From a virus, in the IMG/VR virus record IMGVR_UViG_3300043449_000479, positions 1 to 31,109 of that record: DNA of 31,109 bases; one strand, written 5' to 3'. The translations under genes and the position numbers were made by a program. Positions 1 to 4,436 of this stretch are shown in pieces; position 1 is the stretch's first letter; each line of letters opens with the position of its first letter. The notes below the pieces were generated by a model that was not told the DNA's origin, made no database searches, and was given only the letters and a program-made list of their open reading frames with translations.

Positions 1-366
1 CCCGAGAATTATCTCGAGGTATCTCCGACCGGGAACTTCGAGGTCGAGTCGAACGTCCCGGTCTCCGTAACGGTCGAAAAAGAAAAACCGACTTCGGGAT
101 ATCCGATCTCGATCGATCCTTCGGACGTAATAATAAACCCGGTCTCTTACGACTTCTTTAACCGGAAGGATCTTCGATCGGTCTTATCCGCGACGAAGAT
201 TAAGGAGTCCTTCGGATATCTCGAAACGATTACCTTCTGGGGATCGACGATCCTTTCCCGCCTTAATAAAGTCGAGGCGGAGATCTTCTCGGACGTCCTC
301 CGGGATATCGCGCAACTACTCTCGGATTCCGATAAAAAGTCGGATAATTATTATCCGAAGTCTTAA
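1..366 (+). CDS. Hypothetical protein, 5'-truncated (C-terminal 121 residues)
   Basis: The reading frame is open from base 1 and ends at a TAA (364-366), so only the C-terminal 121 residues are inside the window and the start lies upstream. The visible part begins PENYLEVSPTGNFEVESN, has a Val/Glu-rich beta-like stretch, then a more helical segment (KVEAEIFSDVLRDIAQLL), and ends in NYYPKS. Codon use follows the same near-total avoidance of TG and CA as the neighbouring genes. I recognise no family. A promoter-like box and a palindrome follow it, so it probably ends the transcription unit before the methyltransferase cassette. It is certainly coding by frame and composition; its function is unknown. 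Confidence 0.75.
   Translation, partial: PENYLEVSPTGNFEVESNVPVSVTVEKEKPTSGYPISIDPSDVIINPVSYDFFNRKDLRSVLSATKIKESFGYLETITFWGSTILSRLNKVEAEIFSDVLRDIAQLLSDSDKKSDNYYPKS
341..357. promoter_or_regulatory. Perfect 7-bp-arm palindrome, possible operator
   Basis: CGGATAA-TTA-TTATCCG spans the last codons of the upstream gene and sits 16 bases before the TATATTCG box at 374-381. That is about where a -33 element would lie. A related core (GATAA-N3-TTATCCG) occurs before the RecT-like gene. It could be an operator or part of a terminator. Because GGATAA and TTATCC are common words in this DNA, chance is a real alternative. Confidence 0.35.
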
Positions 367-404: not shown

Positions 405-1277
405 ATGAAGAAGACCTTAACCCCTTATCCCTTCTCGATCTTCGATAAGATCTCGAAGGACGATCTCCGGGAGATCCTCGAGATCCTCCGGGAAGAAGTC
501 GATTTCGATATCGAATCGATCTTCGAAGAAACGGTAAACGATATCGCGTTTATTGCCGGGAAGGAAGATAAACGGAAACTCGTTAAAGATCTCGAGTCCC
601 GTTGGTACTCCTCCCTCGAATCCGGAGAACCAGATTCCGAAGTTTATTACTCGATCGATTACCTTCCGAACCTCTGGTCCTGCTGGGCGATTTACCTCCG
701 TAATTATCTCCGATCCCTTAAGTCTCCGAAAGGTATCCCGGCGGATCTCTTTAACGAATCGAGGTCGGTATTAAAGGAGATCGGATCGGTAAAAAAAGTC
801 GTCGATCTCGGGAACGGTATCGGATACTCGACCGCCCTTATTAAGGAACTCTTCCCCGGGGCGCACGTCTTCGCGACGAACTTCGAGGGAAGTCCGCAGT
901 TTAAGATAGGGGAGGCGATCGCGGAGACTTACAGATTTACTCTCCTCCCGGAGGAAGAGTCGAAGAAGATAGGGAAGGCGGAGGTCGTATTCGCCCTCGA
1001 TTATTTCGAGCACTTTAAGGTGCCGATCGACGAACTCGACGAGGTAATCGAAACCTTCTCTCCGGATTACCTTATTACGGCGAACGCGTTCGGGACTCGA
1101 TCGATAGGACACTTCGAGACGTATCGATACGGATCGGAGATATTAACCGGGAGTAAGATCTCTCGGAAGTTTAACGATCGTCTCCGGTCTCTCGGATACG
1201 AAAAACTCGAAACCCGGATCTGGAACGACCGTCCCTCCGTCTGGAAACGTAAACCCGTAACCCTTAAACCGCTATGA
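405..1277 (+). CDS. Class I SAM-dependent methyltransferase-like protein
   Basis: The 290-residue protein has a Rossmann-type SAM-binding motif I, VVDLGNGIGYST, at residues 132-143. A second strand, VFATNF, follows near 155-160, and AEVVFALDYFEHF at 192-204 resembles the post-motif 'D-x-x-EH' seen in many class I methyltransferases. No DNA cytosine-C5 PCQ loop or DPPY/NPPY amino-methyltransferase motif is visible, so the substrate is open: a sugar, a modified base or a small molecule. The first 130 residues are helical and unassigned. The start is ATG after an A7 run. Its stop overlaps the next start (ATGA), coupling it to the 1274 gene and the glycosyltransferase at 1708. That context suggests a part in making or finishing a modified nucleobase, which is inference. 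Confidence 0.6.
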   Translation: MKKTLTPYPFSIFDKISKDDLREILEILREEVDFDIESIFEETVNDIAFIAGKEDKRKLVKDLESRWYSSLESGEPDSEVYYSIDYLPNLWSCWAIYLRNYLRSLKSPKGIPADLFNESRSVLKEIGSVKKVVDLGNGIGYSTALIKELFPGAHVFATNFEGSPQFKIGEAIAETYRFTLLPEEESKKIGKAEVVFALDYFEHFKVPIDELDEVIETFSPDYLITANAFGTRSIGHFETYRYGSEILTGSKISRKFNDRLRSLGYEKLETRIWNDRPSVWKRKPVTLKPL

Positions 1278-1711
1278 CGAAAAAGAACCTTCCGACCCTC
1301 TTCGACCTCGACGAGTTCGAACGCTGGCGAGATACCTGGAACGGGATGCCGACCTTTAATCAGAAGGACTTAACCTCCTTTAAGTCGATAATCGTCCACT
1401 TCGCGACCGAATCGGATTACCGGGAGTTCGGGAAGTTAGTCGGTCAGAAACTTACGTATAAGACTCGATCGATCTGGTATCCCGAAGCCGAAATCGGTCG
1501 AATGATGGATAAACTTATCGTCTCCGATCTCCCGGATCTTCCTCCCGCGAATCCCGTTTATACCGACTCCGATCGTCCTTCGGTAATTCCGACGGCGAAG
1601 GATTACGAAATCGTAAACGAACCGGATCCGGACGAACCGGAAGAAGAGGAACCGGGGGATAATCCTACCGGGGACGACTTCGACGAACTTATTAAACGCG
1701 GAATAATATGA
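1274..1711 (+). CDS. Small conserved phage protein paired with the glycosyltransferase ('MPEF'-type)
   Basis: The 145-residue protein has a compact N-terminal domain: WNGMPTF at 22-28, SIIVHF at 38-43 and LVGQKLTYKTRSIWYP at 55-70. The last third is acidic and proline-rich (around 110-135). From memory, proteins with this W-x-x-MPEF ... IIVxF ... GQKxTxKTxSIWxP pattern occur in many phages, often beside TET-associated glycosyltransferases, and have no established function. ATGA overlaps at both ends place it between the methyltransferase-like gene and the glycosyltransferase, so the three are probably translated as a unit. A substrate- or DNA-binding accessory role is possible but unproven. 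Confidence 0.6.
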   Translation: MTKKNLPTLFDLDEFERWRDTWNGMPTFNQKDLTSFKSIIVHFATESDYREFGKLVGQKLTYKTRSIWYPEAEIGRMMDKLIVSDLPDLPPANPVYTDSDRPSVIPTAKDYEIVNEPDPDEPEEEEPGDNPTGDDFDELIKRGII

Positions 1712-2616
1712 ACCCCTCCTTTCCGATTTATATCGTATCGAAGGGACGGCACGAGTCGAGACTTACTTCGAAGACTCTCGAACGTCTCCGGATCCCTTAC
1801 TTTATCGTCGTCGAAGAATCCGAGTTCGACCTTTACGCGTCCGTAATCGACCGGAAGAAGATCCTTATCCTCGACGAGAGATTTAAGGACGAATACGAAA
1901 CCTGCGACGATTACGGATCGACCCGGAGTAAACTTTCCGGTCCAGCACGGAACTTCGCCTGGGACGACTCGATCCGGAGGGGATTCGCCTGGCACTGGCT
2001 TATCGACGATAATATCGACGGATTCTTTCGACTCTTCGATAATATAAAGACCCCGGTCGGAGACGGGACGATCTTCCGAGTTATGGAAGACTTCGTTCTC
2101 CGATACCGAAACGTCGCGATGGCTGGCCCTAATTACTTTATGTTCGCCTCCCGGAAGTCGAAACTTCCTCCCTTCGTCCTTAATACCCGGATTTACTCCT
2201 GTAACCTTATCCGGAACGACGTTCCCTTCCGCTGGCGGGGAAGACTTAACGAGGATACGATCCTCTCCCTCGACTTACTTAAAGCCGGATGGTGCACGGT
2301 ACTCTTTAACGCGTTCCTTCAGTTAAAGATGACGACCCAGACCCTTAAGGGAGGGAATACGGAATTTTACCGATCGGTCGGAACCCTCGAAAAATCGAAA
2401 CTCCTCGTCGATACGCACCCGGACGTCGCCCGGATTTCGTATAAGTTTAACCGGTGGCACCACCACGTCGATTACCGTCCGTTCCGGAATAACCGTCTCG
2501 AACTCCGGGAAGGAGTAAAGATCGAACCGGGAGTAAACGATTACGGTATGAAGGTAAAATATATCGAAAAAGAGAGGTCGGAAGACGTATCCTCCGACCT
2601 CGATAAAAACCCTTAA
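1708..2616 (+). CDS. TET-associated-type glycosyltransferase (GT-A fold), putative DNA base glycosylation
   Basis: The 302-residue protein opens with PIYIVSKGR (6-14) and continues with GPARNFAWD (78-86). The metal/nucleotide-sugar motif WLIDDNIDGF lies at 97-106, with D100-D101-N102 as the DxD-like residues. Further motifs are RWRGRLNEDT (175-184) and a His cluster HHHVDY (251-256). This order matches the phage family described as TET-associated glycosyltransferases, which add sugars to oxidised 5-methylcytosine in hypermodified phage DNA. Length fits a complete enzyme. No C5-methyltransferase or TET/JBP dioxygenase is in the window, so the acceptor is not known; those genes could lie upstream of base 1. 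It is coupled by ATGA to the previous gene. Fold and family are fairly sure, the acceptor is inference. Confidence 0.8.
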   Translation: MNPSFPIYIVSKGRHESRLTSKTLERLRIPYFIVVEESEFDLYASVIDRKKILILDERFKDEYETCDDYGSTRSKLSGPARNFAWDDSIRRGFAWHWLIDDNIDGFFRLFDNIKTPVGDGTIFRVMEDFVLRYRNVAMAGPNYFMFASRKSKLPPFVLNTRIYSCNLIRNDVPFRWRGRLNEDTILSLDLLKAGWCTVLFNAFLQLKMTTQTLKGGNTEFYRSVGTLEKSKLLVDTHPDVARISYKFNRWHHHVDYRPFRNNRLELREGVKIEPGVNDYGMKVKYIEKERSEDVSSDLDKNP

Positions 2617-3461: not shown

Positions 3462-4436
3462 ATGGACTCTTTAACGAAACCCGGAACCGGAACTCCGATC
3501 GAACTCGAGAAAATCCGGACTTATCTTCAGACCCTTAACTTAACGACGAACTTAACCCCGGCGGAGGAGAAACAGTTTATCGAGATCGCGCAGGCGTTCG
3601 GATTAAACCCCTTTAAGAGGGAGATTTACGCGTCGAAGTACGGAACCTCCTTCTCGATTATCGTCGGATTCGAGACGTATATTAAACGGGCGGAGAGATC
3701 CGGACGACTCTCCGGTTGGAACGTCCGTACCGAAGGCGATATAAATTACTCCGATATCGCGAAATCCCGGATAAAGGCGATTATTACGATATATCGGAAG
3801 GACTGGGGACACCCGTTCGTTCACGAAGTTTGGTTCGAGGAGTACGCGCAGAAGACGAAGGACGGATATCTTAATAAGTTCTGGCGGGAGAAACCCCTTA
3901 CGATGATAAAGAAGGTCGCGATGGCCCAAGGATTTCGTCTCTGCTTCTCCGACGAACTCGGGGGATTACCTTATACCTCCGAAGAGATCGGAGTCTTTAC
4001 CGACTCTCTCGACGTAACGACGACCTTTACTCCGGCGAGTAATTCGACTCCTTCCCCGGCGATTCCTTCCGCGGTAACTCCGGAACCGAAACCCGAAAAA
4101 CCGAAGAAGGAGAAGAAGAAGGTCGAGAAGATCGAGAAGGACGACGATTCCTTTACTCCGGCGGAACCTACGGAACCGACCGATCTTACGAAGGAGTTCG
4201 AAAGGATCTCTTCGGAGATCGATAAAGCCGAAACGATCGAGGATCTTAAGAGGATTTATCAGGAGAACGTCGGTTGGTCGAAGGACGGCGAGTTCCTCGG
4301 ACGTCTCTCCGTTAAACGGAAGGAGATCGAATATAAGGAGGAAGAACTTCGCCGTCGTAAACTCGAGGAACCTCCCCTCGAAGTAAAAATCGAACTCGAA
4401 TCCCGTCCCGCGAATAAAGACGGAGAACTCTTTTAA
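3462..4436 (+). CDS. recT: Bet/RecT-family single-strand annealing recombinase
   Basis: This 324-residue protein carries family hallmarks: QAFGLNPFKREIYASKYG (44-61), then SIIVGFETYIKRAERSGRL (65-83) with a following GW, and WREKPLTMIKKVAMAQGF (141-158) leading to a conserved LGGLPYTSEEI. It should bind single-stranded DNA and promote annealing during phage recombination and replication. The domain ends near residue 180. The remaining 140 residues are a Pro/Lys/Glu-rich low-complexity linker and a charged helical tail, so it is longer than typical Bet proteins. No RecE/lambda-exonuclease or YqaJ partner is inside the window; it may lie upstream. A9-rich leader and ATG start. SSB is encoded downstream in the same direction. 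Confidence 0.85.
   Translation: MDSLTKPGTGTPIELEKIRTYLQTLNLTTNLTPAEEKQFIEIAQAFGLNPFKREIYASKYGTSFSIIVGFETYIKRAERSGRLSGWNVRTEGDINYSDIAKSRIKAIITIYRKDWGHPFVHEVWFEEYAQKTKDGYLNKFWREKPLTMIKKVAMAQGFRLCFSDELGGLPYTSEEIGVFTDSLDVTTTFTPASNSTPSPAIPSAVTPEPKPEKPKKEKKKVEKIEKDDDSFTPAEPTEPTDLTKEFERISSEIDKAETIEDLKRIYQENVGWSKDGEFLGRLSVKRKEIEYKEEELRRRKLEEPPLEVKIELESRPANKDGELF

What the first reader, a model, noticed from the sequence alone, without database searches (positions are those of the whole stretch)
405..2616. Coupled methyltransferase-like / MPEF-type / TET-associated glycosyltransferase cassette
Three genes joined by ATGA overlaps encode a class I methyltransferase-like protein, a small conserved companion of unknown function and a glycosyltransferase with WLIDDNIDGF and HHHVDY motifs. 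Phage TET-associated glycosyltransferases belong to pathways that build sugar-bearing cytosines. The methyltransferase lacks visible C5-cytosine motifs, so it may modify the sugar or act late. This could be a variant hypermodification pathway, with the methylating and oxidising enzymes upstream of the window.
Basis: partly seen in the sequence, partly recalled or inferred. Interest (0 to 1): 0.7.

Follow-up and report, generated by a model that had tools for sequence, protein, structure and literature searches.

The report
Phage glycosyltransferase cassette with partner, methylase
Three overlapping phage genes form a conserved unit, found in many unrelated phages, that most likely attaches a sugar to the phage's DNA and then methylates that sugar, without any of the known enzymes that normally make the attachment point.

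Summary
In detail: 405-1277, 1274-1711 and 1708-2616 encode a class I methyltransferase (MT), an 'MPEF'-domain protein (CP) and a TAGT-family glycosyltransferase (GT; PF20691, 3e-36), joined by two ATGA overlaps. They are a real unit. In 52 distinct MT loci, GT lies within 1 kb in 41, in any order, with GT-MT and CP-GT fusions. Of 103 MPEF loci found blind to GT, 98 have GT within 1 kb. About half of MPEF proteins carry a long N-terminal extension (ParB-like where scanned). Other phages put an FkbM methyltransferase, a sulfotransferase, a second GT or a radical-SAM enzyme in the MT slot, which points to tailoring of a transferred sugar. So this is a 'solitary' TAGT system, a kind the 2026 literature calls undefined. 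Best model: CP positions GT on phage DNA and MT caps the sugar. The acceptor (DNA or protein) is unproven. Separately, the genome almost lacks CA/TG dinucleotides.

The parts
405..1277 (+). MT: class I SAM methyltransferase, 290 aa, with an N-terminal helical region (1 to about 110)
   Evidence: Pfam Methyltransf_23 6e-5, sub-threshold; relatives above cut-off; AF2 pLDDT 95, nearest PDB folds small-molecule O-/N-methyltransferases; family-invariant D134 G136 G138 E202 H203 N227 G235 H236
1274..1711 (+). CP: MPEF-domain companion, 145 aa; stand-alone, no ParB domain; acidic C-terminal tail
   Evidence: AF2 confident mainly at residues 30-80
1337..1525 (+). MPEF core domain of CP (W22 to about residue 84: WNGMPTF...SIIVHF...GQ.LT.KTRSIWYP)
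   Evidence: conserved columns W22, M25, P26, F43, F52, W68, P70 in 74-75 sequences
1708..2616 (+). GT: TAGT-family (PF20691) glycosyltransferase, 302 aa
   Evidence: PF20691 3.1e-36; phrog_842 1.1e-46; keeps near-invariant R81 N82, D100 D101 N102, N181 E182 D183, G215 G216 N217
1996..2025 (+). WLIDDNIDGF: contains the DDN motif, 98-99% conserved
2458..2475 (+). HHHVDY motif near the GT C-terminus
   Evidence: H252 conserved in 95%
1274..1277 (+). ATGA stop/start overlap, MT to CP
1708..1711 (+). ATGA stop/start overlap, CP to GT
1..366 (+). left border gene of the variable interval (open at the window edge); 57-61% identical in sister phages L103 and L094
2631..2906 (+). 91-aa gene just right of the cassette; 38% identical homologue in L108/L119
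2921..3409 (+). right border gene of the variable interval; 46-54% identical in sister phages, followed by RecT in window and sisters
3462..4436 (+). RecT/Bet-like annealing protein: places the cassette in the recombination/replication module
   Evidence: PF03837 4.9e-27, phrog_10056 4.5e-42

Best explanation
The three genes make one enzyme system that builds a methylated sugar on a phage acceptor, most likely phage DNA. GT transfers a sugar from a nucleotide-sugar. CP, the MPEF domain, is its obligate partner; in about half of the family it carries a ParB-like extension and in some phages it is fused to GT, so it probably positions GT on its substrate. MT then methylates the transferred sugar. 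Shown: family identities, obligate coupling, fusions, and interchange of MT with other sugar-tailoring enzyme types. Inferred: DNA as acceptor, sugar O-methylation, CP as targeting subunit. The source of the acceptor group is unknown; it is not a TET or hydroxymethylase pathway of any recognisable kind.
For: Coupling: 41 of 52 distinct MT loci have GT within 1 kb, orders CP-MT-GT 14, MT-CP-GT 8, CP-GT-MT 8, MT-GT 6, GT-MT 5, and 4 of them are GT-MT fusions. A scan on the MPEF DNA motif, blind to GT, gave 103 true MPEF loci, 98 with GT within 1 kb. CP-GT fusions occur, including Aeromonas phages phiAS5 and 65. Targeting: 99 of 209 MPEF proteins (not deduplicated) carry a >90-aa N-terminal extension, which is ParB_N by Pfam or NCBIfam in most of those scanned. 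Tailoring: genes between CP and GT are MT (28), a second TAGT (8), radical SAM/SPASM (4), FkbM methyltransferase (2), sulfotransferase (2) or other GTs, counts not deduplicated; L032 has a ParB_N-MPEF-FkbM protein before GT. DNA as acceptor: TAGT of T6 acts on DNA (PMC13216743); the window cassette sits with RecT, a replisome organizer and SSB; sisters L082 and L118 carry a C5-cytosine methylase in the same interval.
Against: No acceptor-making enzyme is recognisable, so glycosylated DNA lacks a known precursor. Many cassettes adjoin terminase genes (28 of 57 loci), and in Vibrio phage 1.076.O the CP-GT gene lies between portal and head-morphogenesis genes, which would also fit virion-protein glycosylation. 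T4 relatives lacking the gene-42 network, which that review's list implies for Aeh1 and 65, are said probably to lack major cytosine modification (PMC2993671). The window CP lacks the ParB part.
Confidence: 0.55

Rival explanations
1. Virion protein glycosylation: GT glycosylates a capsid or tail protein and MT methylates the glycan, as proposed for Corndog-like mycobacteriophages, whose O-methyltransferase and glycosyltransferase genes lie among structural genes.
For: Terminase within 3 kb in 28 of 57, 14 of 55 and 6 of 47 loci of the three searches; Vibrio phage 1.076.O has the gene between portal and head genes; the Corndog precedent pairs an O-methyltransferase with GTs (PMC4351075); no hydroxyl source for DNA.
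Against: ParB-like extension on about half of the partner proteins; TAGT chemistry is on DNA in T6 (PMC13216743); the window cassette and many MT cassettes lie with recombination/replication genes.
Confidence: 0.25
2. Classical TET route: a C5-methyltransferase and a TET dioxygenase in the missing part of this genome make 5hmC, which GT glycosylates.
For: TAGT family name; P12024L shows a true TET-TAGT-methylase operon; sister phages L082 and L118 carry C5-methylases; the window is a linear, perhaps incomplete record.
Against: P12024L's TAGT is only 25.6% identical, its methylase is of N6/N4 type and its operon has no MPEF gene hit. No TET in any metagenomic cassette record tested; C5-methylase only in a minority.
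Confidence: 0.07
3. Alteration of host surface glycans or of another small-molecule glycoside: GT and MT act on a host glycan.
For: GT-A fold related to GT2 (PMC13216743); NAD-epimerase and cytidylyltransferase genes flank some cassettes.
Against: ParB-like partner; no flippase or membrane glycosylation genes recur in the neighbour clusters.
Confidence: 0.08

Closest known systems
TAGT family PF20691: T2/T6 beta-glucosyl-HMC-alpha-glucosyltransferase
   Same: Same Pfam and PHROG family and conserved motifs; GT-A fold per literature
   Different: The T6 enzyme extends glucosyl-hmC made through dCMP hydroxymethylase and alpha-GT (PMC13216743); here no hydroxymethylase or TET is found and GT is coupled to the MPEF protein and MT
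TET-TAGT-methylase operon of Nonlabens phage P12024L
   Same: GT next to a methyltransferase
   Different: TET present, DNA N6/N4-type methylase, no MPEF hit, TAGT about 25% identical
Solitary TAGTs of Aeromonas phages Aeh1, 65 and phiAS5
   Same: About 52-55% identical GT; phiAS5 and 65 carry an MPEF domain fused N-terminally; Aeh1 enzyme listed as 'presumably modifies DNA, unknown base' (PMC8056088)
   Different: CP and GT are one polypeptide; no methyltransferase annotated next to the phiAS5 and 65 genes
ParB-CTPase fusions of phages (PMC12704722)
   Same: ParB fold fused to accessory domains, including Methyltransf_23 in phages
   Different: The passages read name neither MPEF nor TAGT; the window CP lacks ParB
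Corndog-type putative virion modification genes (PMC4351075)
   Same: O-methyltransferase beside glycosyltransferases
   Different: Located between portal and protease genes; whether those GTs are TAGTs was not tested

Membership tests
TAGT glycosyltransferase (PF20691) | match above curated cut-off over the domain | tested here: met
   125.7 bits v 27.5, residues 5-215
TAGT glycosyltransferase (PF20691) | conserved DDN and NED motifs | tested here: met
   D100 D101 N102 and N181 E182 D183
TAGT glycosyltransferase (PF20691) | sugar transfer to DNA | not testable with these tools
   needs biochemistry
TET-TAGT hypermodification pathway | TET/JBP dioxygenase in the same genome | tested here: inconclusive
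   absent from the 31-kb window and all metagenomic cassette records tested, but the window may be incomplete
TET-TAGT hypermodification pathway | C5-cytosine methyltransferase in the same genome | tested here: inconclusive
   absent from the window; present in a minority of relatives
T-even glucosyl-hmC pathway | dCMP hydroxymethylase (TS fold) | tested here: not met
   PF00303 absent from the window and 41 metagenomic cassette records; the phiAS5 hit is annotated thymidylate synthase; a missing contig end could still hide one
DNA C5 or amino methyltransferase (for MT) | PCQ/ENV or [DNS]PP[YFW] catalytic motif | tested here: not met
   none in window MT; [DNS]PP[YFW] in 0 of 50 and PC[QN] in 1 of 50 family members
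MPEF-coupled TAGT cassette (described here) | MPEF-domain protein adjoining TAGT | tested here: met
   98 of 103 MPEF loci; window CP and GT overlap by ATGA
MPEF-coupled TAGT cassette (described here) | ParB-like domain on the MPEF protein (optional feature) | tested here: not met
   window CP has only about 21 residues before the domain; 99 of 209 members have a >90-aa extension

The most novel reading that the evidence does not exclude
A widespread phage DNA-modification system in which an MPEF/ParB-directed TAGT attaches a sugar to DNA without hydroxymethylcytosine or TET chemistry, and interchangeable enzymes then methylate, sulfate or extend the sugar.
Probability: 0.35. Interest if true: 0.85.

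Novelty: new variant of a known kind. Interest (0 to 1): 0.6.

Why it matters
A 2026 study counts 288 of 753 glucosyltransferase-bearing phage genomes with a solitary TAGT of undefined function (PMC13216743). This work gives such TAGTs an obligate partner (MPEF, often with a ParB-like part), a recurrent tailoring slot (methyl, sulfo, second sugar, radical SAM), natural fusions, and cultured phages in which to test them (Aeh1, 65, phiAS5, Vibrio 1.124.O and 1.076.O). If DNA is the acceptor, new base-glycosylation chemistry is implied; if protein, a new virion-glycosylation family.

Tried and rejected
TET and C5-methylase as partners: no support. MT alone as query in viral contigs found nothing; the three-sequence alignment found 102 loci, 80 kept. 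CP against PDB: no convincing sequence relative and no fold match; its viral fold matches are unnamed or uncharacterised phage proteins. MT fold search gave only generic small-molecule methyltransferases, TM 0.29-0.47 by query length, so its acceptor cannot be read from the fold. A link of the dinucleotide bias to the cassette was considered and dropped: TAGT loci span CA 0.53-1.34 and cassette-free sisters show other extremes. A TAGT tree had long branches and an unsettled bootstrap; MT-bearing GTs are scattered on it and nothing more is claimed. Iyer et al. 2013 and Burke et al. 2021 are not held, so an earlier description of parts of this system cannot be excluded.

Full report
Observation. 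The window is itself a whole 31,109-bp IMG/VR virus record classed linear, hence perhaps a fragment. GT is a clear PF20691 TAGT and phrog_842 protein. MT folds confidently as a class I methyltransferase. CP matches nothing in four family libraries.

The companion. CP homologues sit directly before GT in most of 80 TAGT loci. In many, the domain is the C-terminal part of a longer protein whose N-terminal part is ParB_N in most of those scanned; in others it is fused to the N-terminus of GT (L026, L034, phiAS5, phage 65 and more). A scan of viral contigs with the DNA motif for W.GMPEF, which knows nothing of GT, gave 103 loci encoding a true domain, of which 98 have TAGT within 1 kb. Of the other five, L222, L227 and L265 have the gene close to an end of the DNA held, L246 has downstream a gene that by eye resembles an FkbM methyltransferase and then the contig piece ends, and L215 has GT 1,054 bases away beyond one gene. 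The companion is thus an obligate partner of this TAGT clade. Of 209 such proteins (not deduplicated) 99 are unfused with a >90-aa N-terminal extension, 95 are short and 15 are fused to GT. The AlphaFold2 model of the window CP is confident mainly at residues 30-80 and shows one long helix there (46-56) and no assigned strands, so it may need its partner to complete a fold (inference).

The methyltransferase. MT relatives found with an alignment are coupled to TAGT: among 52 non-redundant MT loci, GT lies within 1 kb in 41 and somewhere in the fetched DNA in 45; the other seven fetched stretches hold no GT. All orders occur and four are GT-MT fusions. MT has none of the C5 or amino-MTase motifs; its family-wide motif is EYFEH (49 of 50), which follows the fourth core strand. 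It is therefore not a recognisable DNA-base methylase.

The tailoring slot. Genes between CP and GT in different phages are MT (28), a second TAGT (8), radical SAM/SPASM (4), FkbM methyltransferase (2), sulfotransferase (2) and other glycosyltransferases (counts not deduplicated); NAD-epimerase and cytidylyltransferase genes flank some cassettes. Methylation, sulfation and extension are all ways to decorate a sugar, so the simplest common factor is a transferred sugar. This is inference.

What supplies the acceptor. Tet_JBP is absent from every metagenomic cassette record tested (39 relatives plus the window; 28 more), while the same search finds phage TETs in Nigel and P12024L. PF00303 is absent from the window and 41 metagenomic records. 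It is present in phiAS5, annotated thymidylate synthase, and in phage 65 and henriette 12B8, where its identity was not examined. PF00145 occurs in 7 of 40 and 3 of 31 records. Complete cultured genomes with ParB-TAGT near terminase (c5, jlb1, vB_EcoS-666R9) have none of the three. The literature states that solitary TAGTs are common and undefined (PMC13216743) and lists the Aeh1 enzyme as a presumed DNA modifier of unknown base (PMC8056088).

Genomic slot. In sister phages found through the terminase (78-79% identical in L082, 74% in L094 and L103; L118 holds only part of the gene) the interval between the left border gene and the gene at 2921 is variable: empty in L103, a beta-helix protein in L094, a C5-cytosine methylase in L082 and L118, the MT-CP-GT cassette here. 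The C5 genes lie to the right of the 2631-type gene and the cassette to its left, so it is the same interval, not the same junction. In L082 and L118 the left gene is matched by position, not by BLAST.

Verdict. The unit is real (near certain); its acceptor is open. I favour DNA because of the ParB-like partner, the family's known substrate in T6 and the genomic setting, over virion protein glycosylation (Corndog precedent, PMC4351075), which stays a serious rival because many cassettes lie beside terminase genes.

Noticed in passing
window 1-31109: The genome almost lacks CA and TG dinucleotides (rho 0.17; 292 CA and 383 TG in 31 kb; in 15 genes TTG 0, CTG 0, ACA 0, TCA 1, GTG 2), with GC halved and CG and GA raised, uniformly along the genome. 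Cause unknown; selection against a dinucleotide-targeting defence is one idea.
   Followed up: partly
L094, L095, L096, L097, L103, L106, L112 versus L086-L093, L108, L118: Phages with terminase 69-74% identical to the window's nearly lack CG instead (rho 0.04-0.07; 42 CG in 21 kb of L103), while others have CG about 1.8-1.9. Related phages carry opposite extreme dinucleotide biases.
   Followed up: partly
L082 2968-4083; L118 3667-5112: C5-cytosine methylases in the same variable interval that holds the cassette in the window.
   Followed up: partly
L323 2622-4887 (Nonlabens phage P12024L): True TET-TAGT-N6/N4 methylase operon in a cultured marine phage.
   Followed up: partly
L322 90-1713; L324 2274-3849; L325 2217-3933: Remote TAGTs (22-25% identical) in Lactobacillus and E. 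coli phages overlap a ParB gene with a different, non-MPEF C-terminal part, near terminase.
   Followed up: partly
L195 7548-8156: Gene beside GT with a possible 2OG-Fe(II) oxygenase HxD...H pattern by eye; no Pfam match.
   Followed up: no
L203 5883-7648: MT-GT pair on a 7.7-kb contig binned as a Verrucomicrobia MAG, the only hit in genome contigs; probably viral.
   Followed up: no
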